Assembly (NCBI GenBank): GCA_963681505.1
Contig: OY811989.1
Coordinates: forward strand, 4,368,736-4,432,735
Length of the DNA: 64,000 bases
Origin: Eunapius fragilis
Taxonomy: Eukaryota > Porifera > Demospongiae > Spongillida > Spongillidae
Direction of reading: 5' to 3'
In this document: in pieces, positions 7,615-63,200 of the stretch
How positions within the stretch are numbered: the stretch's first letter is position 1
Layout of the letters: each line of letters begins with the position of its first letter
The notes under the pieces: model-generated
Database searches by the model: none
Seen by the model: the letters and a program-made list of their open reading frames with translations, nothing else
Told to the model about the DNA's origin: nothing
Position numbers and translations under genes: made by a program

Positions 7615-8613
7615 TCAGTCACTATAGACACTGGAAGACCTGTTACTCTCCCTGTCATGTTTGCAGAACCTGAGATGATACTTTAACCCTTTCATGTATA
7701 AAAATGATCTGGAGCATCCTCTGTTCTGGCATTTCAATCTCTCATCACAATGTATTCGGCAGTGGGTCTTTAATGCAATTATTGATGCAAATGATTTCTC
7801 CCCTGTATGAGTGAGCATGTGTCCTTTCAGGTTTGACTGTTGTGAAAATGACTTTCCACATTGTTCACACTGATGTGACTTCTCCCCTGTATGAGTGAGC
7901 ATGTGTCCTTTCAGGTTTGACTGTTGTGAAAATGACTTTCCACATTGTTCACACTCGTAAGGCTTCTCCCCTGTATGAGTGAGCATGTGTCCTTTCAGGT
8001 TTGACTGTAGTGAAAATGTCTTTCCACATTGTTCACACTGGTAAGGCTTCTCCCCTGTATGAGTGAGCATGTGTCTTTTCAAGTGTGACTGTCTTGGAAA
8101 TGTCTTTCCACATTGTTCACACTGGTAAGGCTTCTCCCCTTTATGAGTGAACATGTGTGTTTTCAGGGTTGACTGTTGTGAAAATGTCTTTCCACATTGT
8201 TCACAATGATGTGGCTTCTCCCCTGTATGAGTGAGCATGTGTCCTTTCAGGTGTGACTGTCGTGAAAATGCCTTTCCACATTGTTCACACTGATGTGGCT
8301 TCTCCCCTGTATGAGTGAGCATGTGTGTTTTCAGGCTTGAGTGTTGTGAAAATGTCTTTCCACATTGTTCACAATGCGGCTTCTGCCCTGTATGAGTGAG
8401 CATGTGTATTTTCAGCTTTGACTGTTGTGAAAATGACTTTCCACATTGTTCACACTGGTAAGGCTTCTCCCCTGTATGAGTGAGCATGTGTGTTTTCAGG
8501 TTTGACTGTCGTGAAAATGTCTTTCCACATTGTTCACACTGATGTGGTCTTGTCCCTAAGGACAATACCTCTCCAACTTGTTCACTCTGATGTGCTTCCT
8601 CTCTATTGGCCAT
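7615..8613 (-). CDS. C2H2 zinc-finger protein, 9 canonical fingers (paralog 1)
   Basis: Probable sequence-specific DNA-binding protein in the nucleus. Starting at MANREEAH there are 332 aa: a short acidic leader, nine tandem fingers of the form [20 protein letters not shown], a degenerate tenth finger and a conserved tail with C-x4-C...H...C-x-H ending SSSVYSD. The open frame extends 27 codons upstream, but that extension is not kept in paralog 2. An acceptor-like ACTAG also sits just before the chosen ATG, so I favour the internal start, possibly with a 5' exon upstream. The tenth finger lacks the ICFCKK cysteine pair present in paralogs 2 and 3, so it cannot bind zinc. Inferred base-contact positions differ between otherwise near-identical fingers. 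No KRAB, BTB or SET domain is visible. Confidence 0.93.
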
Positions 8614-32004: not shown

Positions 32005-32078
32005 TTTACCCAATAGGATTTGAACCTACAACCTCTTACTTAGAAGGTAAATGCTCTCCCAAATTGAGCTATGGGTAG
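32005..32078 (-). tRNA. tRNA-Arg(UCU)-like sequence, possibly a SINE head
   Basis: Read on the minus strand it folds as a cloverleaf. Acceptor CTACCCA/TGGGTAA has one mismatch at the outer pair. The D arm is GCTC...GAGC, the anticodon stem TTTAC/GTAAG with loop CTTCTAA gives anticodon UCU, and the T arm is GTAGG-TTCAAAT-CCTAT. The A box (TAGCTCAATTTGGG) and B box (GGTTCAAATCC) are intact. No run of four T follows closely, and GC-rich sequence continues for about 200 bp, so a tRNA-derived SINE or relic is as likely as a working gene. Confidence 0.6.
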
Positions 32079-42502: not shown

Positions 42503-43528
42503 TCAGTCACTATAGACACTGGAAGACCTGTTACTCTCACTGTCATGTTTACAGAACCTGACATGATACTTCAACCCTTTCATGTATAAAAATGATCTGG
42601 AGCATCCTCTGTTCTGACATTTCAATCTCTCATCACAATGTATTCCACAGTGGGCCTTTAATTCAGTTATTGATGCAAATGATTTCTTACAGAAACAGAT
42701 AAATGGTTTCACCCCCGAATGAGTGAGCATGTGTCCTTTTAGGGTTGACTGTCGTGAAAATGCCTTTCCACATTGTTCACACTGATAAGGCTTCTCCCCT
42801 GTATGAGTGAGCACATGTCTTTTCAGGGTGCCCTGTCGTGGAAACTTCTTTCCACATTGTTCACACTGATGTGGTTTCTCCCCTGTATGAGTGAGCATGT
42901 GTCCTTTCAGGCTTGACTGTACTGAAAATGTCTTTCCACATTGTTCACACTGATAAGGCTTCTCCCCTGTATGAGTGAGCATGTGTGTTTTCAGGTGTGA
43001 CTGATCTGAAAATGACTTTCCACATTGTTCACATTGATATGGCTTCTCCCCTGTATGAGTGAGAATGTGTCTTTTCAGGTGTGACTGATCTGAAAATGAC
43101 TTTCCACATTGTTCACATTGATATGGCTTCTCCCCTGTATGAGTGAGCATGTGTCTTTTCAGGTTTGCTGGTTGTGAAAATGTCTTTCCACATTGTTCAC
43201 ACTGGTAATGCTTCTCCCCTGTATGAGTGACCATGTGTATTTTCAGGCTTGACGGATATGAAAATGTCTTTCCACATTGTTCACATTGATATGGCTTCTC
43301 CCCTGTATGAGTGAGCATGTGTCTTTTCAAACTTGCTGCTTGCGAAAATGTCTTTCCACATTGTTCACACTGGTAAGGCTTCTCCCCTGTATGAGTGACC
43401 ATGTGTATTTTCAGGTGTGACTGTCGTGAAAATGTCTTTCCACATTGTTCACACTGATGTGGTCTTGTCCCTAAGGACAATACCTCTCCAACTTGTTCAC
43501 TCTGATGTGCTTCCTCTCTATTGGCCAT
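42503..43528 (-). CDS. C2H2 zinc-finger protein, 9 canonical fingers (paralog 2)
   Basis: 341 aa from the same MANREEAH start as paralog 1: nine fingers of the CEQCGK...[12 protein letters not shown] type, then a variant finger [21 protein letters not shown] and the [10 protein letters not shown] tail finger ending SSSVYSD. Inferred contact residues (-1, 2, 3, 6) vary from finger to finger: R-S-H-I, Q-A-S-R, Y-S-S-I, Q-A-N-R, D-S-H-R, D-S-H-T, V-S-S-G, R-G-T-R and R-S-T-G. Fingers 5 and 6 are near-identical neighbours, a sign of recent tandem duplication. The upstream extension seen in paralog 1 is out of frame here, which supports the MANREE start. The function is inferred to be DNA binding; the target is unknown. 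Confidence 0.95.
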
Positions 43529-46394: not shown

Positions 46395-46685
46395 AATCCA
46401 GGGGCGGACACAGGATTTAGAATTACGAGGGCACAAAGGGCAAATGGTACAAAAGGGGTGCCCCTGGGGGATCGCTGTAAGCTCTTCCCCATTGGTGTCT
46501 GGGGCAAAGCCCCAGAAGCTTTGCAAGTTCTGCGTTATGAAGCTTCAGAACGATAAAGAATTTCACCACAAAAATTTTTTCTTATCCGTATATTAGGGGG
46601 GGGGGGGGGGGCATACGCCCGCCCCCTCCCCCCCCCAACTGTAAGTACAATGGAGATGTAACAAAAAGCAGGTCAATGCGTACAG
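46395..46685 (+). mobile_element. GGGGCGGACACAGG-type element, copy
   Basis: Matches 52,390-52,725 closely: GGGGCGGACACAGGATTTAG, the AAGCTTTGCAAGTTC block, TATGAAGCTTCAGAA, then G/C tracts and AACTGTAAGTACAATGGAGAT. Just beyond it, 46,686-46,694 carries the single uninterrupted CTGGCGCCT that is duplicated around the 52.7-61.5 kb transposon. Confidence 0.8.
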
Positions 46686-46699
46686 CTGGCGCCTACACG

Positions 46700-47560
46700 A
46701 CTGGGAATGTACACTGATTAGTACCCTCCACCTCCGATTACGCTATATATTACATAACTATCGTGGCATATCACGGCTGTTTCGCATGGGCATTAAGTAT
46801 ACAATTAGAACGCAATATGATATTTACGGTTCATCCAACATGGCTACGCTTGGAAAACTCATTAAAATTTTGACAATAACATTTCTACAGCCATCGTATG
46901 GCATGTGCATTTGAAAAAGGGACTAAATATATCCTTCTATTTAACTTTAACTCTACGCATGCTGTCGCATCTGCTACTGGGCTGTTTTTTCTTACGCGCA
47001 TACGAAGGTTCCAAATTGGCGCGAAATAATCCTTTCAGTCAGGGCTTTGTAACTCTTTCTGCCCTTATAAGTCCCCTTCAAAACAAAAGAATCAAGTAGT
47101 ATCATCCTATCCTCGTAAGTACATATCTTTATCCTGTGGTATAAATCAAAATAACATACAACCTAAATCATGAATAATTCGTTCCGCGCACATAATTCAG
47201 AGGCTTTGGAATCATATGTGGGGTTAAAAAAAAGGAATTCAAAGCTCTATACAGCTGCTGCTCGTTTGATGACTTGTTAAAAGAGATCCTCTTACAACAG
47301 TTTTGTATGCCATGGGCAGTTGTAAAATGGTGCATACCTGATGCTGGTATATGAGTCAGTGTGAACTCTTTTGAGGTTCAAGCAAACTAGGACAATGGCA
47401 CAAAGAAAATGTTGAATGTTCTGGTTAAACAAAGGTGGAGCTGTCCTTTTATTATGGTATGATATCTTGGGAGGGGAACAATATGTTAGAAAAGTCTGCC
47501 GCTATATATACATCATGCATGCAGCCAATAGAAATGTATGTTGCACGGCACATACTTGAT
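46700..47560. other. No gene seen
   Basis: AT-rich, with short open frames only. Confidence 0.5.
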
Positions 47561-51398: not shown

Positions 51399-52088
51399 TC
51401 AGTCACTATAGACACTGGGAGACCTGTCACTCTCACTGCCATGTTTACAGCTCTTGAGGTGATACTTCAACCCTTTCATGCATAAAAATGATCTGGAGCA
51501 TCCTCTGTTCTGGCATTTCAATCTCTCATCACAATGTATTCGGCAGTGGGCCTTTAATGCCTTCATTGATGCGAATGATTTCTTACAAAAACAGATAAAC
51601 CGTCTCTCCCCTGAATGAGTGAGCATGTGATTTTTCAGGGTTGACTGTTGTGAAAATTTCTTTCCACATTGTTCACACTGGTAAGGCTTCTCTCCTGTAT
51701 GAGTGAGCATGTGTTTTTTCAGGTTTGACTGTTGTGAAAATGTCTTTCCACATTGTTCACACTGATGTGGCTTCTCCCCTGTATGAGTGAACATGTGTTT
51801 TTTCAGGTTTGACTGTACTGAAAATGTAGTTCCACATTGTTCACACTGATGCGGCTTCTCCCCTGTATGAATGAGCATGTGTGTTTTTAGGGTTGATTGT
51901 ACTGAAAATGTCTTTCCACATTGTTCACACTGATGTGGCTTCTCCCCTGTATGAGCGAGCATGTGTCTTTTCAGGTGTGACTGATATGAAAATGTCTTTC
52001 CACATTGTTCACACTGATGTGGTCTCGCCCCTAAGGACAATATCTCTCCAACCTGTTGACTCTGATGCGCTTCCTCTCTATTGGCCAT
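51399..52088 (-). CDS. C2H2 zinc-finger protein, 5 canonical fingers (paralog 3)
   Basis: 229 aa from MANREEAH: leader, five CEQCGK/CEQCGT-type fingers, the variant finger [21 protein letters not shown] and the [10 protein letters not shown] tail finger ending SPSVYSD. It is the shortest of the three intact paralogs; the loss or gain of whole 84-bp finger units explains the length differences. As in paralog 1, 27 in-frame codons precede the chosen ATG but are probably untranslated or part of another exon. Confidence 0.94.
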   Translation of the reverse strand: MANREEAHQSQQVGEILSLGARPHQCEQCGKTFSYQSHLKRHMLAHTGEKPHQCEQCGKTFSVQSTLKTHMLIHTGEKPHQCEQCGTTFSVQSNLKKHMFTHTGEKPHQCEQCGKTFSQQSNLKKHMLTHTGEKPYQCEQCGKKFSQQSTLKNHMLTHSGERRFICFCKKSFASMKALKAHCRIHCDERLKCQNRGCSRSFLCMKGLKYHLKSCKHGSESDRSPSVYSD

Positions 52089-52725: not shown

Positions 52726-53085
52726 CTGGCGCCTTAGTTGGGCGTAGCCCGACCTTCGCGTATTGGCGGAAGGTTGGGTATTAAGCCTATACCTGGATTT
52801 GTACCCATCTGATAGTGCTGTGGGCTATTAACACCTGCTTGGTCTGACTGTTGATTGCGTGATAACTACGCGTTGGTCGCGTGGCAGGCTATGAATCTTT
52901 TTTAAAGGCTCAGAGAAGTCAGGCTACAAGTGTAATATCTGTTGGTGAACATTCGTCCCAAGAGAATGACTACACCTGAAGTAGCGGTATGTGACTAGTA
53001 CGTAGTAAAAGAAAAACGTACGGTTGTCATTATAGATACAAGTTGGTTACAAGAGAAAAGCCAAAACTTATGTATTGACTCCAAA

Positions 53086-55960
53086 ATGGCAGCACATAGG
53101 CAGGGCAATTGCTCGAAAAGCAAAAAGGTCATAGCTTCAGAGGCGTTAAAGGACCCGAAGACAAAGAACTATGTAGTGGAGATGACTGGGAGAGAATTGG
53201 TCAAAGAGGTGAAAGTCATGGCTTCTGATGGAGCCCACTCCATTCTGCAAAGCCAAAATCCATCACACTTAAAGGAGTTCTCATGGAACATGCTACTGAA
53301 TGAGGTCTCACAGTTTGCACCTGTACTGAGAAGTTTGCTGTTCTCAGCCACACACACCAGGGTTCCCCGCATCAATACTGATGCCACAGTTGGGATGTGT
53401 GTAGCTATGCTCGTCAATAATCGAAATCCGAAGATGAATTTGGTGCAAAAAATTAATTCACTGCTTCTTTATGCTGCTTATACTTACAAGCAGGTATATG
53501 TTGATAAAAATCTTTCAAATTACATGGCATCTTCGCATACATGCACGTGTGTATTTTCATTTTGGATGCTCATGCACGATTCTTGTATACATGTAGATCT
53601 ACCAGTGATTTAAACAGCTAAATCTAACTGTGTCCTATCCAAATTGTAAGTGTTTAATGGTACATGTATTCCATATTATAAGGAAACGTATTACCATTTT
53701 CAGATAATGCAGAAAGCCCCATGGTTTTCATCAGAGGATAGTGGTGTCCAATCATCCTCTGACACAGACTCTGATGGAGGTTCAGATTCAGACTATACAT
53801 GGAGGAGCTACTCACCTGTCACCTGTGACGAAGAGTATGAGTACATGCTTAGGGATCAAGAGGATGCCAATGAGTCTGTTAGAAGTGGCTGATGGCTGCT
53901 GAACCAATGCAGTATGACCCAGGCAACACACAATCTACTTGTCAACTGCAATAGCCAGCAAATTTAGCCCTTCTATCAAGCTCTACCCCATCAAAGCATC
54001 TTGAGGAACAAGGTAGATGAAATGGTATTTCAGTTCAGTTCCGTGTGAATGTGCTTGTGAATATATACTGTGTGTTGATAGTTCATTGTCCTTGATACTA
54101 GTAACAATGTCTTATTTAAAATAGGTCATCTAACTATGTATCATCTAAGTGCAGACAATATAGATAAGGGGATAAAGCAGCGGTACATGAGGATTGATAA
54201 TGAAAAGCCCGATAGTATCCATTCTTTTGCTGTTGCTGATTGCATTGACTTCAGTAATCTAAGTGAACAGCTTATTCTTACTGAGCAAAGGGATGCCCAA
54301 CTAGTAGCAAAATCCCTCCTACCCACCCTAGAGGATGATACGGCTTTTCGTACCAACATCTGCATCTTGATGTCTTGAAACTATACCAAAACATGGAGTT
54401 CTTCAAGCACTCTTTTGATCCTGTCATTGACTGGCATATCAAACATGAATTTTATGATGAAATGTCCACAAAGTCAACTGTGGTGAGTTCACATTCTATA
54501 AGAGGCGGTGCTGCATTTGTGAGGATTGTTAGGCAATAGACATTATTTTATATTGTTATACTGTATCTTGTGCTAATTATAAAATGCTAGTTTATTAACT
54601 TAAATGTGTATTGGTGAAATCTATGAACACATTCAAATCCAGCATCCAATTGGGATTCAACCCAGAGATGAAAATAAACAGAAGATATGGTTATCATTAT
54701 GAAAGAAATGCAGAAGTATGTCCCAATGGTGGAAACAGTCGAGAATGTATATGTATCAAGCCTGGACAGAACTGTCAAAGTGACAAAAACCCGTGCACAT
54801 CTGATACAGTTTGCTGGGGACCAGAAGACAGCAGCTAGAGGAGAGGAGCGCAAAAAGCAAACGTGTGTGCAGTATCACATACTAACAGGCTTACTAGATT
54901 AGTCCCTGTTGTTGCTCATTGGCACACAAAAGTCAAGCATCTTGAGGTAACAATCATTCATTACATTATACATGTATGTGTGCATGTATGTATGCAGGTG
55001 ATTTGGAAGTTCTTTTACTCCAATCGTTCAGGTGGAGACCATGGTACACTATATCAACTATGAAACAAGCTGAACTGTACAAATGTTGTAAAAGTTCCTA
55101 AGTAAGATGTAAATGCGTGTGAAGATTTCATTGAGATCATCACTTCGTCTAGTCATTGCTACTGCTATGACCACTTTACAACTGAAGTCAGCAAATGATT
55201 TCCCTTCTGATAGTATCTTACCTGGGGCCGAAACGGTTTGGATGCTGTCTGACAACGAGAGACGAGGGTATCTAAATGAGCTTTGTGGACAGTTATATGA
55301 TAGTTTCGTACACACAACTTACAATGACAGCGGGAAAATGTGAGCAAGACATGACAAAAGTCTTTGAATACTCCGTACAGTTATTGCGTCTCTGCTGCAT
55401 TTACATGGAGTTTTCAGATGCAATTAGAGAAGGTGTGATGGTGTGTGTGTCCTTCAGTGCTGGACATACATGTTAACAATTTTCTCAGCTTCTGGTAACA
55501 AAAACTATGCTTGTGAAGCTGCAAACTTCCTTTTTCAGCACACTTATATGCTTTCCCCTCGACTCTCAGCACAGCGTTTGTGGAGTCGTTTTGTAAATGT
55601 ACATGGGAAACCAGGAGAAAATATTCCAGTCAACCTGCATATGGAACATTTGAACTAAATCGCAAAAGGTGCCATTCGCTTTATGGGATCATGCAAATCA
55701 TTAAAGGGGATTCAAAGAATTGGCCAGGCCATAGGCACTCTATCTCCAGTTTTGGAAAATTTTGATAAATAATGTGACTATCAACTCTAGCAGACAAAAA
55801 AAGCCAAACGCAGTAAATGACATTCTAGTTGTAGTCAATGAGCTGTCACATCTAAATGTTTTGCTGCACAAGTAGAAGGAAGAAGGCACTTTGCATTTCC
55901 CAAACCAAAAAATGTGCTTAATGGCAAAGACCCCCAAGAACTATTGGAATGGCTTGTTGG
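53086..55960 (+). pseudogene. DUF6589-type transposon protein, frameshifted
   Basis: Exon 1 starts MAAHRQGNCSKSKK at 53,086 and ends at a GTATAT donor after 53,493. Later pieces carry FFKHSFDPVIDWHIKHEF, EMQKYVPMVETVE, IQFAGDQKTAARGEERKKQ (counterpart of the family GGDQLT-R motif), LVPVVAHWHTKV, VIWKFFYSNRSGGDHGTLYQL and, near the end, NRIAKGAIRFMG. These follow the usual order of DUF6589 proteins found in animal and fungal transposons. At least three frame changes (near 54,357, 54,860 and 55,145) and stops after 55,767 show it is dead. The acidic Ser-rich block at 53,710-53,890 may be an exon or intronic. Confidence 0.85.
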
Positions 55961-56040
55961 AAAATTGCCCAGATATTTTAACTGTGTGTATTTCTTAAAT
56001 TTGGTATTATGTGTAACAATATATTTGTATACACTACAAT

Positions 56041-57507
56041 TTAGTCACAAATAATGAACTTTAAAACAAAACAAAAGGCTGCAGGCAGGTTTGCTTCACA
56101 CAATCCACATACACAAAAATTTGCACAGTAATCACAGCATAGGCACTTTATGCCTACATCTACATACATATAATTCTCCATGTCTCTAAAAAGAATGTGA
56201 CGTCTGCAGTGTGATATGTTTGAAGTCATCATTTACTGTGTGGTAGGTTCTCGAAAGAAGCAATGTGGCCACAGAGGTGCTACCGTCCCTGCCAGCCCGT
56301 CCAGTCTCCTGAATATAACAGCAGACATCATCTGGCAACCCAGTGTGAATTATTTGCCTGACATTTGAGCAATCTACACCCATCCCAAAGGCTACTGCAG
56401 CAATGACAACCCTTAGATTGCTTTCATTTGTGAATAAAGTAAGGATTTGTTGTTTGTGGATGTGTTCAGTGAGACTTGTGAACATATCCACAAGTCGGAA
56501 CTCAGGTATATCAGGTGCATCTTCAGGAATAACAAAACCTGAACCAAGTTGACTCTTTAAGTAAAGGTATATGTCAGCGCAAATTCCAAATGAACATCCA
56601 CAGATTATTGTTTTTGGGAATTTGTTCTTCTCATTCTTCAATCTTTCAGCAAACACTTTGAAGGTCTGAGGTATGGTCAAGAAAGGTCTGACATGATATA
56701 CCAAATTGGCCTTTGTTGGGCACTTAGTTAGGACAAATGGCTTTCTTAGACCCACTGTTTGAGTCACTGCTAAACAGTCACTTCTAGTGGCAGTTGCAGC
56801 CAATGCCATCATATGTACCCCTATATATTAAAGTTAGGAAGAGCAATTCAAAATACATCAGTTATCATATAGCTTGTTAGATTCAGCGCTACTCCTTTAA
56901 ATAAAATCATGATAATTCACCATTTATTAACGCAGTGTGCCTCGTCAATCACAAATGCCCTAAGTCTCACATTGAAGACATCTCCTTGAATCACTCTTCT
57001 CCACTTCTTGCTGGCTAGTACAATCTCAGGTGAGAAAAACACGAACTGGATTTTCCTAGAGACAAGTCACTTAGAATTCTGCTGTCAGACATGTCCCCTG
57101 AGACACAGATGCTCGTGAGGCCTTTTGAGCAATACGTTGTTACCTGTTATTATGAGTAGTGAACTATTGATGTAACACGATGTAGAAGTTGCACAAGCCG
57201 GCATACATACATTTACCTGATCTTCCATTATCGACACAAGAGGGGTCACGACGATAACTATAGAATAACCTCACTCTTTTTTCATAAACTTATCAAACGC
57301 TAGCTGCGAGCAAGTGTAACATTAACTCTTGCCAAAGCCAGTAGGCAGAACTGAAAAAACATCTCTGCCCTCAATGAAAGTAGCAGCTACTTCAAGTTGC
57401 TCTGGTTTCATCTCTGGATAGCCCAACTCCTTAGCCACGTCGGTAATGCACTCTTTAACTCTCTCCATAGTCTGACACATATTATTATACAAATCCAGCT
57501 GTCTCAC
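56041..57507 (-). pseudogene. RecQ-like DNA helicase of the transposon, inactivated
   Basis: Minus-strand motifs in order: MKPEQLEVAATFIEGRDVF and LPTGFGKS (Walker A), VIVVTPLVSIMEDQ (motif Ia), FVIDEAHCV (motif II, DEAH), MMALAATATRSD (motif III), VVIAAVAFGMGVDCSNVRQI (motif V) and QETGRAGRDG (motif VI), then a Cys-rich tail CLCCDYCANFCVCGLC. Introns are small. Damage: in-frame TAA directly after GKS and a TGA 18 codons later, a one-base loss before QFVFFSPE, and a frameshift between the helicase core and the Cys-rich tail. The 5' end lies at the inner edge of the terminal inverted repeat. Confidence 0.9.
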
Positions 57508-57578
57508 TCATAGCCTGACTTCTCTGAGCCTTTAAAAATGATTCATAGCCTGCCATGCGACCAACGCGTAATTATCAC

Positions 57579-57703
57579 CAGTGGTATTTCATCTATCTCC
57601 GTGATTCTCTGTCTATCCCCGTGCATGTTTGTATTGCGATATGTCAAAGATATATCGCGTATCGCGATATATAAAAAATATCGCGATATATTGTGGCGCC
57701 CTG
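57579..57703. mobile_element. 125-bp hAT-like insertion with 8-bp target duplication
   Basis: Ends CAGTGGTATTTC and TGTGGCGCCCTG. ATTATCAC is perfectly duplicated (57,571-57,578 and 57,704-57,711). The interior holds TATCGCGATATA repeats. The empty site is the left inverted repeat of the host transposon near 52,860. Confidence 0.88.
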
Positions 57704-57742
57704 ATTATCACTCAATCAACCATCAGACCAAGCAGGTGTTAA

Positions 57743-58757
57743 GGTGACAGGATACCCTCCTGGATTTTGAAAAAAAATCATACTAGCTTGTAGCCTGAGA
57801 GCATCTTAGAGGACCGTATCATTATGACAGTTATTAAATGAGCAGTAAAAATAGTACAAGTATTCTAAGAATTAAACTTTGTTGAAAACTGCAGTGCTTA
57901 AAAATCACCAAATTAGGAGGATAAATATGAAATAATATCTTCTTTCGTTTGGTGCATTCGTTTCGAAATGGAGCAGTAGGTTTGTGCCAAAGCTTATACT
58001 AACCATCATTTCAGGGTGAACTAATTGGGCTAAACATGGATTACTCACGCTGGGCATTCCAGAACAGCTAGTTTATCGTGAATACACGTTCTTCATTACT
58101 TAATTGACTTTTTGGTGTATCGATAACATTACTATCCTTTTCCACAAATTTACAGCAATTTTTTACAAAGTTACGCATCCCTGGACGCCATATTTGTACC
58201 TTGAAATTGAAATTTTATTAATAGATAGATTTTCGGTTTTCGGCTATTTAGAAAAAAGTAACTTATTTTGAAAACAGGGACTAGATATTTTCCTACACGT
58301 ACGCTCTTCTTGGTGCTTAGCTCCTATCGTAATAATATGCTCAACACTTGATCATAAGGTCTGTTGTCCTGAATGTACAGGAAAAAGAGTTTTTGCCGTT
58401 CGTATTTCAAGGTGCTCGTAAAACTAGCGGTGCTAGTGCTTCTGCGCGTTATTGAAATGCTATCAAGGTGGCATATCTTAAACAATAAGGTGGATTCTCT
58501 CCGAATTATATACGGTACTTGAACAGAACTACCAATTGTTGATGACGTATTTTAATAATTCAGACACCAAATAACATGGCGGACTCAAACTGCGCATGCG
58601 TGCGCGAATTAAAAGATGGAAGATGCGAAAATTCAAAGCACTGCGCTCGGTTAAATACGTTACTTATCCAAATGATATCAAGGTGGCATATCTTGAACAA
58701 TAAGGTGGATCTTACCAAAATTTTTTCTGATAAAACCTCGTTATGGGTACAACTACC
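57743..58757. mobile_element. 1.0-kb TTAA-flanked insertion (piggyBac/Kolobok-like)
   Basis: TTAA duplicated at 57,739-57,742 and 58,758-58,761. Ends GGTGACAGGATACCC and GGGTACAACTACC form a short imperfect inverted repeat. The left inverted repeat of the host transposon shows the empty TTAA site. Inside, a ~45-bp direct repeat (ATCAAGGTGGCATATCTT...) occurs near 58,465 and 58,675. No coding capacity is recognised. Confidence 0.85.
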
Positions 58758-59669
58758 TTAATAGCCCACAGCACTATCAGATGGGTACAAATCCAGGTAT
58801 AGGCTTGATACCCGACCTTCCGCCAATGGGCTATTCCATTATTTAACCGTAGGGTAGCGTCAGGTATGGTCGCCAGTGCAGAAGTGCTCGCCACTCTTCC
58901 TTTCAAACGTGGCGCTAGGGCTTACCTAACATTTGTATGTCTTGGCACAAAACGGAAGCAACAGTCCTGGGACTCTGTGTTTACGGCACGTTGTTCAAGT
59001 TTTATTTACTATTAACGTTTTTGCAAAATAATTATACAAAGTTAGCTACCTCATTTCTAAGTTAAATGGCGCTGTAAACAACGCACAATTGCTAGCGGGT
59101 TCTATTGGTGCAAGTTAGTGTACGCGAGGTATGTAGCACAGATTGACATAATATCGTGCTATTATAGAAGAGTAGTTATTTCTGTACAATGTACTTAGCT
59201 TTGTTTTAAAAGAAACCTTATGACTTGAGAATTAGTGAGGGTGGCGAACACTCCAACGGAATTTACGCTCATAAGGAGTAGTCGCCAGGGGTGGCGACTA
59301 CTCCTACCTCATGAAATTTGTCTTTTGGCTTAAATTGGCAACCATTAGGCTCCCAAATGTTTCCTATATCTTGTGTGCTAAGCGTTTGTGGTCTGTATGT
59401 TGTGGAGGAGTGTTCGCCATAGGGGTACATGCACGGGTCAATTGTGTCTCATTCTGCATGCGGTCATTCAGCCAAAATACTAGGCTATTCTTAAATGTCT
59501 ATCTGCTGTTCTCATCATTCATCAAGCTTAGCTGAAGAGAGTGCAAATACTTCTGCAAATACAGAGAAGTTTATCTTGAACTTATACTTAGCTTACATAT
59601 ATGCTTGTACATGCTCATGTCGTAGTGTATGAAGTAATACATTTTTTAATCATATTGCAGTGTTCTGTA

Positions 59670-60971
59670 ATGGAACGAGAATTATTGAAGTATTCAGCTG
59701 AGAGCATGGATGCAGCTCTGAAGGAAGTGAGGGAGGGTCGTATGACTTGTTTTGCTGCATCTAAAACATTTGGTGTACCACATTCTACACTTCGTGACAA
59801 ACTCTCTGGCAGAAGTCCTGAAGGAAGGCATATGGGTCCTAATCCAGTCCTCACTAGAGCTGAGGAGGCTTCATTAACAACCTTTTGCATCAAGTTGCTC
59901 AAGTGCGGCTTTCCAATAAATCGTGGTGATTTATTGGATATTGTGCAAAAGGTTGTAAAGGAGGATAAAAGGAAAACCCCATTTTCTGACGATAGGCCAG
60001 GTAAATATTGGTTTTATGGGTTTATGCAGCGCAACCCTCAGCTAACAGAAAGGTTCCCTGAAAAATTAACAGGTGGAAGGGCCACGGTAACAGAGGCTCA
60101 TATTCGCAAGTGGTTTGCAGATATAGAGATGTATATAGTTGAAGAGGAAAGGGCTGGGGATGTCCTCTTAGATCCTCATCATGTTTTCAACTTTGATGAG
60201 TCACACTTTCTTCTTGCCAAGAAAAGGGGTACTGTTTTGGGGCCGGTTAATTACAAAAACTTTTTGGAAGTGTCCAAAGAGAATGACAAGGAGGGCCTAA
60301 CTGTACTGATAGGATACTCTGCAAATGGAAATTTGGCCCCACCCATGATTGTGTATTCCTACAAACAGAACATTCCTTGTGATGTTATCGAGTCTGTGGG
60401 AAGTGTAGATCCTAGTTGGGCATTGGGAAAGTCAGAGAGTGGGTGGATGACAACACTGACATTTCTCGATTACATTCCATTAGTTTTCAATCCTTGGCTT
60501 AGTGAGAACCATGTACAAACACCTGTTGTAGTGTTTGCTGATGGTCATAAATCCCATCTGTCTCCTGAAACTGTTGAATTCTGTGCATCCAATGGGATCA
60601 TCTTGGTAGCACTCTATCCAAACTCCACCCATATGATACAACCCTTAGATGTGTCAGTCTTCAAGCCATTGAAGGGGCTATGGGTGAAAGCAAAAAGGAC
60701 ATGGAAGGCTTTTAACTCTGACCAGACCATCATACGGTCGCCTTCCAAAATACTACAATCACAAAGTGAAGCTTTCCTGGGGTTGTTAAAGGCTGCTCCA
60801 TACTTGATAACTTTGATAAGCAATGTTGTGTTACAATCCATCTTCCATGCGCTACGTAACAACCAAATACAGGGGGGTGGCGAACAGTCCAACCATACGT
60901 GGCGAGAGACCAACCGCATTGGCGACTATACCAGAAATCCGCTTAATTGGATAAAACAGTTGTTTTCCTAA
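59670..60971 (+). CDS. Pogo/Tigger-type transposase (psq HTH plus DDE_1), C-terminus possibly altered
   Basis: The exon begins after a TATTGCAG acceptor at 59,660, and ATGGAACGAG at 59,670 gives 433 aa. The N-terminal region has MDAALKEVREGRMTCFAASK followed by VPHSTLRDKLSGR, a pipsqueak-type helix-turn-helix. Middle: YWFYGFMQRNPQLTER, the usual CENP-B/Tigger link. The catalytic triad is visible as FNFDESHF, VVFADGHKSHLSPE and HMIQPLDVSVFKPLK. After about residue 360 the expected GIYPFN-like ending is not found, and the frame runs into subterminal repeat sequence, so the last ~70 residues may result from a frameshift. It is the only transposase in the window with an unbroken catalytic domain. 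Confidence 0.92.
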   Translation: MERELLKYSAESMDAALKEVREGRMTCFAASKTFGVPHSTLRDKLSGRSPEGRHMGPNPVLTRAEEASLTTFCIKLLKCGFPINRGDLLDIVQKVVKEDKRKTPFSDDRPGKYWFYGFMQRNPQLTERFPEKLTGGRATVTEAHIRKWFADIEMYIVEEERAGDVLLDPHHVFNFDESHFLLAKKRGTVLGPVNYKNFLEVSKENDKEGLTVLIGYSANGNLAPPMIVYSYKQNIPCDVIESVGSVDPSWALGKSESGWMTTLTFLDYIPLVFNPWLSENHVQTPVVVFADGHKSHLSPETVEFCASNGIILVALYPNSTHMIQPLDVSVFKPLKGLWVKAKRTWKAFNSDQTIIRSPSKILQSQSEAFLGLLKAAPYLITLISNVVLQSIFHALRNNQIQGGGEQSNHTWRETNRIGDYTRNPLNWIKQLFS

Positions 60972-61137
60972 GTACGAAGCATGCTTTTTGAATAAATGGA
61001 GCCGTAGTAGTATAGAGTGATAGCTGACGATCTCTTGGAATCAGGTATGTTTGTATAATTATCCTTCTTGTTTGCTGTATATTCAAGACAACCGAGATCG
61101 CTACTCACGGGTGGCGAGCACTACCTACGCTACCCTA

Positions 61138-61399
61138 CACCCCTACAGATGACAATAATTGCAAATGTACCCCCCAGGACAATTTATAAAAGCACCCCTG
61201 GACAATCTCATATTATATCTCCACCTCCCCGGGACAGACTTGTAAATGCCCCCTGGACAAGCTTCTGTTTTGTTCCACCCCCCTGGACAAGCTTCTATTA
61301 TGCCTTCTAACTCCCCCCGGACAGGCATTTAAATGACCACTCCCCGAGACATATTCCCTATACCCCCCTGGACACCATTTATTGTCATCTGTAGGGGTG
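61138..61399. mobile_element. 262-bp MITE at TA with CCCCTGGACA internal repeats
   Basis: Termini CACCCCTACAGATGACAATA are inverted; TA is duplicated at 61,136-61,137 and 61,400-61,401. The interior has about eight imperfect copies of a CCCC(T/C)GGACA(A)-type motif. It interrupts the right inverted repeat of the pogo-type element. Confidence 0.85.
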
Positions 61400-61599
61400 T
61401 ATAACTAAATAATGGAATAGCCCAATACGCGAAGGTCGGGCTACGCCCAACTACTGGCGCCTCACTGGACATGTACACTGATTAGTTCAGTGTACATGAC
61501 TGGTCGACCCTCGATTAAACGATATGCGCTATACTACATGTATTGTGGCAATCTGCTGCAGTACTAATTAAATTCATATTTTGGATCGGTTTGTTAGGG

Positions 61600-62345: not shown

Positions 62346-62543
62346 TGTTTTGTCTATAGTGAAAAAGTCTCTCCACGTTGGTCACATTGGCATGGCTTCT
62401 CCCCCATATGAGTGATCTTGGGTGTTTTCAGGTTTGGCTGTCATGAAAATGTCTTTCCACTGTTCATACTGATGTGGCTTTGTCCCTGAGGACAATACCT
62501 CTCCAACTTGTTCACTCTGATGTGCTTCCTCTCTATTGGCCAT
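62345..62543 (-). pseudogene. C2H2 zinc-finger fragment (paralog 4)
   Basis: Keeps the [18 protein letters not shown] leader, but the first finger has lost bases (HQYEQW instead of HQCEQCG). A second partial finger is readable only in another frame (KPCQCDQRGE-like toward 62,345). All later fingers and the tail are missing. Confidence 0.9.
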
Positions 62544-63200
62544 TTCTTCACTAGTATAATACAGAGGGGGAAATGCAGTGATTAAAGCAGTGAGGTTTGC
62601 ATATGGGCAGTGCGGGTACAATAGACATCCTTACTTACATACTAACTAGTAAGAAATAATAAACTCTGTCTATCCATCTGGGCTCGTTTCTTGTTGGAGC
62701 ATTTGGCTAGGCCATTTTAGAAAAAAAAGAGGGCTCTTAATTCTTTTCAACAATATGCGGTGACAAACTTCCTTTTTTCAAGTTCACGCATTTTTTCTCT
62801 TGCATGTTGTGTGCATTCAAGTTTTATTACAACTATGTACGTGCAAACCAAAATGTACCACATTCATTGTATGTGGCACATTTTGGTTTTCAATTCGATT
62901 GTGTACATTAATGGTGATACTCAATCTCTATATGAAAGAGCTGCAACGGGCCTCTAGTAGAGTAAATGCCCTTTGTTATGAAATGCATACATATTAACAC
63001 ATGCCACATAAGAGAGGATTTGCACCAACCACCATGCTCTTTAAGTGCGCCGTGACTCTAAGTATATCTTGGATAAGGCTGTCCAGGCTCAGGTTTGGAT
63101 TTTTTTAAACTAGTGGCTTACGATACAAAATATAATAATCTCAACTTAACTTAATGGCATGCAGAACAAGTCTGCTAGTTGTAATCGATGGGTTTATTTG
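62544..63200. repeat. Copy of the zinc-finger upstream flank
   Basis: Matches 8,614-9,000, with a local inverted repeat CCAAAATGTACCACATTCAT / ATGTGGCACATTTTGG at about 62,850-62,890. A degraded TGTAATCGATGGGT piece of the conserved open frame follows near 63,180. Confidence 0.8.

What the first reader, a model, noticed from the sequence alone, without database searches (positions are those of the whole stretch)
52735..61453. Helicase-bearing DNA transposon with convergent DUF6589 and RecQ-like genes, 9-bp target duplication and an empty site in the same window
Both termini (TAGTTGGGCGTAGCCCGACC) and the duplicated CTGGCGCCT are seen directly, and the undisturbed target occurs at 46,686-46,694 in a related flank. 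The pairing of a DUF6589-type protein with a RecQ-like helicase in one element matches what I recall of AcademH transposons. The 9-bp duplication and separate convergent genes may mark a distinct lineage.
Basis: partly seen in the sequence, partly recalled or inferred. Interest (0 to 1): 0.88.

Follow-up and report, generated by a model that had tools for sequence, protein, structure and literature searches.

The report
Worn-out helicase-carrying AcademH-type DNA transposon
This stretch holds a decayed copy of a cut-and-paste jumping gene that carries its own DNA-unwinding enzyme, of a kind already described in animals and fungi; it is a real and well-bounded element, but not a new kind.

Summary
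In detail: the element at 52735-61453 has 20/20 termini and a perfect 9-bp duplication, with an empty paralogous site at 46686-46694. A DUF6589 gene (+) and a RecQ-type helicase gene (-) converge inside it, both broken. Two corrections. First, three later insertions sit in the right inverted repeat (a hAT-like MITE, a TTAA-type element, an AAT-flanked MITE holding a pogo-type transposon); without them the transposon is about 4.97 kb, not 8.7 kb. Second, the 9-bp duplication marks no new lineage: AcademH is on record with 9-10 bp. The gene pairing is the rule here: 75 of 89 DUF6589 loci have a convergent RecQ-like helicase within 4 kb, none divergent, and the two proteins diverge in parallel (r 0.79, 0 of 9999 permutations). 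The terminus occurs 692 times. Of 34 distinct two-ended sites examined, 30 have a 9-bp duplication at 7/9 or better, 15 perfect. That DUF6589 is the Academ transposase is recalled, not tested. Verdict: a degenerate AcademH-type element, a new member of a known kind.

The parts
52726..52734 (+). 9-bp target site duplication, left copy (CTGGCGCCT)
61454..61462 (+). 9-bp target site duplication, right copy (CTGGCGCCT)
46686..46694 (+). undisturbed target in a paralogous flank (empty site)
   Evidence: alignment of the joined flanks with 46465-46722
52735..52941 (+). left terminal inverted repeat, about 207 bp
61422..61453 (-). right inverted repeat, outermost piece (32/32; its first bases 61422-61426 overlap the end of the later MITE and its AAT duplication)
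58758..58827 (-). right inverted repeat, second piece (97%)
57705..57742 (-). right inverted repeat, third piece (92%)
57496..57578 (-). right inverted repeat, innermost piece (89%)
53176..55967 (+). degenerate DUF6589 gene (putative Academ-type transposase): pieces in three frames with stops and shifts; limits are those of the matches to relatives; the N-terminal Cys-rich exon of relatives was not found
   Evidence: profile hit 55272-55778 E 2.5e-13; tblastn against relatives
56186..57486 (-). degenerate RecQ-type SF2 helicase gene, convergent with the former: TGFGKS, DEAH and QETGRAGRDG still readable, stops in the N-terminal half, zinc-binding end missing; limits approximate
   Evidence: Helicase_C E 2.7e-9
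57579..57703 (.). later insertion: hAT-like MITE, 125 bp, 8-bp duplication ATTATCAC
57743..58757 (.). later insertion: 1015-bp element between TTAA copies (piggyBac/Kolobok-type target)
58828..61423 (.). later insertion: MITE (about 310 bp of its own) with 3-bp AAT duplication, holding the pogo-type element
58852..61135 (+). pogo-type transposon at TA inside that MITE; 459-aa frame with HTH_psq and DDE_1

Best explanation
52735-61453 is one degenerate copy of an AcademH-type DNA transposon of about 4.97 kb, later lengthened to 8.7 kb by three independent insertions into its right inverted repeat, one of which had itself received a pogo-type transposon. In relatives a DUF6589 protein, taken to be the transposase, and a RecQ-type helicase are encoded face to face between inverted repeats that begin TAGT. 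The inferred mechanism: the transposase binds the terminal repeats, excises the element and joins it to target DNA with cuts staggered by 9 bp; the helicase, carried by the same element, works as its partner, opening DNA at the ends, at the target, or during repair. Shown: termini, 9-bp duplications, gene pairing and orientation, parallel divergence of the two proteins, and short copies that share termini and inner sequence with coding copies. Inferred: transposase chemistry and the helicase's step. The window copy's genes are both broken, so any movement of this family now would depend on other copies.
For: Ends and 9-bp duplication; empty site. DUF6589 and RecQ-type helicase (the profile's best solved relatives are WRN, RecQ, RECQ1, RECQ5 and BLM). 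75 of 89 DUF6589 loci have a convergent helicase within 4 kb, using all 139 helicase hits (76 of 89 with three further hits); 0 divergent, 1 same-strand, 13 (12) with none. Parallel divergence in 10 non-redundant pairs, r 0.788, 0 of 9999 permutations. Two-gene elements with both ends and a 9-bp duplication: L082 5301 bp (9/9) and L084 5074 bp (9/9) with other termini; C17:3198166-3204240, 6075 bp, with this very terminus (7/9, read by eye). 692 copies of the terminus, reversed-pattern control 0. 30 of 34 distinct two-ended sites have a 9-bp duplication at 7/9 or better; in 90 mispaired controls the best was 5/9. A published passage gives 9 or 10 bp for AcademH.
Against: Of the five DUF6589 loci first fetched whole (L080-L084), only two gave ends with a 9-bp duplication; L081 and L083 gave none, and the pairs listed for L080 lie inside one long inverted repeat and are not credible ends. 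For the C21 relative one end was found but not the other in the piece searched. 4 of 34 sites do not fit a plain 9-bp duplication: L051 has 8 bp, L071 7/8, L102/L103 has 9 bp offset by three bases, L058 has none. Nine C2 loci that share flanks have none and were set aside as copies of one insertion. 13 of 89 DUF6589 loci have no helicase hit nearby. The 34 sites are those that came to hand, not a random sample.
Confidence: 0.87

Rival explanations
1. A separate, undescribed lineage of helicase-bearing transposons, outside AcademH, marked by convergent genes and 9-bp duplications.
For: Convergent arrangement in 75 of 89 loci; no text with the word DUF6589 in the held library; an N-terminal Cys2..Cys2 exon in four relatives that may or may not be in described AcademH proteins.
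Against: The duplication length is the AcademH one; helicase beside an Academ transposase is what the held papers give as AcademH.
Confidence: 0.08
2. A chance neighbourhood: an ordinary transposon that happened to capture a host RecQ gene here.
For: In this copy both genes are broken and the region is full of nested repeats.
Against: 75 of 89 DUF6589 loci show the same pair, convergent, with one same-strand case; about 0.006 per locus is expected by a rough chance estimate; the proteins diverge in parallel.
Confidence: 0.01
3. KolobokH or Helitron, the other helicase-carrying DNA elements named in the held papers.
For: All carry helicases.
Against: Duplications are 9 bp of varied sequence, not TTAA, and elements have long inverted repeats and target duplications. 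The TTAA and Helitron signatures are recalled.
Confidence: 0.02
4. The whole 8.7 kb moved as one composite transposon with three genes.
For: Outer ends and outer 9-bp duplication enclose everything.
Against: Each inner block has its own duplication (ATTATCAC, TTAA, AAT, TA) and the three outer blocks split the right inverted repeat where the left arm is continuous; three two-ended two-gene relatives are 5.1-6.1 kb.
Confidence: 0.01

Closest known systems
AcademH (Academ superfamily; Kojima 2020, Mobile DNA 11:15, not held; described in a passage of PMC10045372 that was read)
   Same: SF2 helicase beside the transposase; 9- or 10-bp target duplications. Kojima's title places it in animals and fungi (reference lists).
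   Different: Nothing tested departs from it. Convergent gene order, the TAGT start and the N-terminal Cys-rich exon could not be compared with the original description.
AcademX (the other Academ lineage, same passage)
   Same: Same superfamily as AcademH.
   Different: Linked there with a nuclease and 3- or 4-bp duplications; here a helicase and 9 bp.
KolobokH and Helitron (named in PMC10799480, passages read)
   Same: DNA elements with a helicase.
   Different: Duplication length and inverted repeats do not fit (their signatures are recalled).

Membership tests
AcademH | Encodes an SF2 helicase beside the transposase | tested here: met
   Helicase_C E 2.7e-9 in the window; DEAD in L082, Helicase_C in L082 and L084, RecQ_Zn_bind above its cut-off in L084 and just below in L082; RecQ/WRN/BLM as best solved relatives; pairing in 75 of 89 loci
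AcademH | 9- or 10-bp target site duplication | tested here: met
   Window 9/9; 30 of 34 sites at 7/9 or better; definition
AcademH | Terminal inverted repeats | tested here: met
   About 207 bp; that AcademH has them is recalled
AcademH | Transposase homologous to Academ transposases | not testable with these tools
   DUF6589 profile is met; that DUF6589 is the Academ transposase is recalled, no Academ profile at hand
AcademX | 3- or 4-bp duplication | tested here: not met
   9 bp; definition
KolobokH | TTAA target duplication (recalled) | tested here: not met
   9-bp varied duplications
Helitron | No target duplication, no terminal inverted repeats (recalled) | tested here: not met
   Both present

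The most novel reading that the evidence does not exclude
The convergent, two-gene, TAGT-ended elements of this genome, with an N-terminal Cys2..Cys2 exon and a terminus whose built-in repeats let copies collapse to 57-bp palindromes, form an undescribed clade within or beside AcademH that left hundreds of termini in one host.
Probability: 0.2. Interest if true: 0.45.

Novelty: new member of a known kind. Interest (0 to 1): 0.32.

Why it matters
Few papers in the held library treat helicase-carrying cut-and-paste transposons (seven texts hold the word AcademH; at least one, an intensive-care paper, is unrelated by its title), and why the transposase would need a helicase is open as far as I know. 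One genome with 75 convergent pairs, two-ended coding copies of more than one family and many short copies with readable 9-bp duplications is good material for asking what the helicase does and how little sequence the ends need.

Tried and rejected
Kojima 2020 could not be read under DOI, PMC or PubMed id, so the original AcademH gene order was not checked. Paper searches: AcademH (7 papers), DUF6589 + transpos, Academ + superfamily + helicase + target site duplication, AcademX, Academ + transposon + sponge, DUF6589. Of these, passages of PMC10045372 and PMC10799480 were read; the rest were seen only in listings.

A profile of the DUF6589 core found no solved relative (best E 0.41, a ribosomal protein), so an RNase H-like fold was not shown. 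No structure was predicted: the window's own gene is broken, and loci from whole-genome searches are not among the sources that tool names. The host organism was not identified.

I considered the 57-bp copies as proof that about 26 bp per end suffices for transposition and rejected it. The left end holds CCCGACCTTC (52748-52757) and the right arm holds the same ten bases further in (58811-58820), so one deletion between these direct repeats gives exactly the 57-mer in place. Five matches at four distinct sites (L088 and L089 share flanks) keep duplications of 7/9 to 9/9, which fits both in-place collapse and transposition.

The first co-occurrence count used a hand-shortened helicase list and gave 76 of 89. 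It was redone with all 139 hits (75 of 89) and with three hits added (76 of 89). DUF6589 hits on one strand less than 6 kb apart were merged (116 hits to 89 loci). Both hit lists are lower bounds: 102 of 215 DUF6589 candidates and 136 of 266 helicase candidates were scored.

Rows set aside before the 34-site count: nine C2 loci (L062-L070) with flanks shared on at least one side and no duplication; L078, L079, L085 and L089 as repeats of other rows; the outer pairing in L071. In one search, 26 of 27 sequences with both proteins were kept (L015 left out for a short helicase match); six of the 26 are second fetches of the same place, and all were collapsed to 10 at 5% distance before the correlation.
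Full report
What was claimed and whether it is there. The two 20-base termini, their position and the 9-bp duplication are exact. The empty site at 46686-46694 is real in the sense that the two flanks, joined, align across it. It lies in a diverged paralogous stretch, so it shows the target without the insertion, not an excision.

Anatomy. The left inverted repeat is continuous for about 207 bp (52735-52941). The right arm is present in four pieces (61422-61453, 58758-58827, 57705-57742, 57496-57578), which match successive parts of the left arm. The gaps are three later insertions, each with its own target duplication. The first is a 125-bp hAT-like MITE at 57579-57703 (8-bp ATTATCAC). The second is a 1015-bp element at 57743-58757 between TTAA copies. 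The third is a MITE at 58828-61423 between AAT copies, which itself was hit at TA by a 2284-bp pogo-type transposon at 58852-61135 with a 459-aa HTH_psq plus DDE_1 frame. Class names for these insertions rest on duplication length and end letters and are recalled. Taking off the three insertions and one duplication copy each (133, 1019 and 2599 bases) from 8719 leaves 4968 bases, close to two-ended relatives of 5074, 5301 and 6075 bp.

Genes. The DUF6589 profile matches 55272-55778 on the plus strand with E 2.5e-13, across five stops. Further pieces upstream match relatives in other frames. The Cys2..Cys2 exon at the N-terminus of four relatives (only sub-threshold zf-AD scores, in two of them) can be read in L110 but was not found in the window copy. 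On the minus strand 56186-56827 is a 213-aa frame with Helicase_C, aligned with RecQ-type helicases of relatives but without their zinc-binding end. The DEAD-type half has stops, with TGFGKS and DEAH still readable. Both genes are broken.

Do the genes belong together? The genome search gave 116 DUF6589 hits (a lower bound), merged to 89 loci. Using all 139 hits of a helicase query, 75 of 89 have a helicase within 4 kb pointing towards the DUF6589 gene, 1 has one on the same strand (a piece on C22, apparently rearranged), 13 have none and none is divergent. In 26 of 26 fetched sequences with both proteins (window included; 20 distinct places) they lie on opposite strands. In 10 non-redundant pairs their distances correlate (r 0.788; 0 of 9999 permutations). 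So the pair looks like an old, co-inherited unit.

Do other copies share termini and duplication? The terminus occurs 349 + 343 times at up to 2 mismatches, with 0 for the reversed pattern; some of these lie in an amplified repeat on C2. Of 34 distinct sites with both ends that were examined, 15 have a perfect 9-bp duplication, 13 have 8/9, 2 have 7/9, and 4 are irregular (8 bp; 7 of 8; 9 bp offset by three bases; none). Mispaired flanks never exceed 5/9 in 90 pairs. A two-gene element with this same terminus at both ends lies at C17:3198166-3204240; its alignable inner parts are 65-71% identical to the window copy. Three two-ended short copies (L030 743 bp, L032 567 bp, L036 496 bp) hold inner stretches 83-88% identical to the window copy, and the 318-bp group shares a 160-column stretch at 93% with the C17 copy. 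Against this, three of the five whole DUF6589 loci (L080, L081, L083) gave no credible ends with a duplication, and the C21 relative gave one end only.

What it works like. A cut-and-paste transposon whose integration staggers the target by 9 bp, with a helicase as obligate or helping partner. The conserved acidic residues in GDNxD, GGDQxT and HMEHLN are candidates for a DDE site; this is inference, and no fold was shown. The helicase's step is unknown. PMC10045372 says that the difference in duplication length between AcademH and AcademX seems related to helicase versus nuclease (passage).

Membership and novelty. The AcademH features that could be tested are met; the transposase homology could not be tested directly. 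The 9-bp duplication is the published AcademH value, so it is no mark of a new lineage. Convergent gene order may or may not be in the original description, which could not be read. I file it as a new member of a known kind.

Noticed in passing
window 58852-61135: Pogo-type transposon with an open 459-aa frame (HTH_psq, DDE_1) inserted at TA within a 310-bp MITE that has a 3-bp AAT duplication.
   Followed up: partly
window 52748-52757 and 58811-58820: The ten bases CCCGACCTTC lie in direct orientation in the left end and in the inner part of the right arm; deletion between them gives the 57-bp palindromes found at four distinct sites.
   Followed up: partly
L062-L070 (C2:7.83-10.31 Mb): Nine fetched two-ended copies (eight of 66-74 bp, one of 2455 bp) share flanks on at least one side and have no duplication, over 2.5 Mb of one contig: apparently one insertion carried along by another amplified repeat.
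   Followed up: partly
window 7796-8556, 42704-43471, 51605-52032, 62349-62693: Related tandem repeats with a period near 84 bases at four places; one array lies about 700 bases to the left of the element.
   Followed up: no
L058 1386-1581: A two-ended copy whose flanks are inverted, not direct, repeats (AACTGAAGTGCCAC / GTGGTACTTCAGTT), perhaps nested in another palindrome.
   Followed up: no
G000 C22:1747666-1747941: A DUF6589 piece inverted next to another DUF6589 gene, probably a rearranged element and the only same-strand case.
   Followed up: no
window 32005-32078: A tRNA gene on the minus strand (Rfam 62.5 bits).
   Followed up: no
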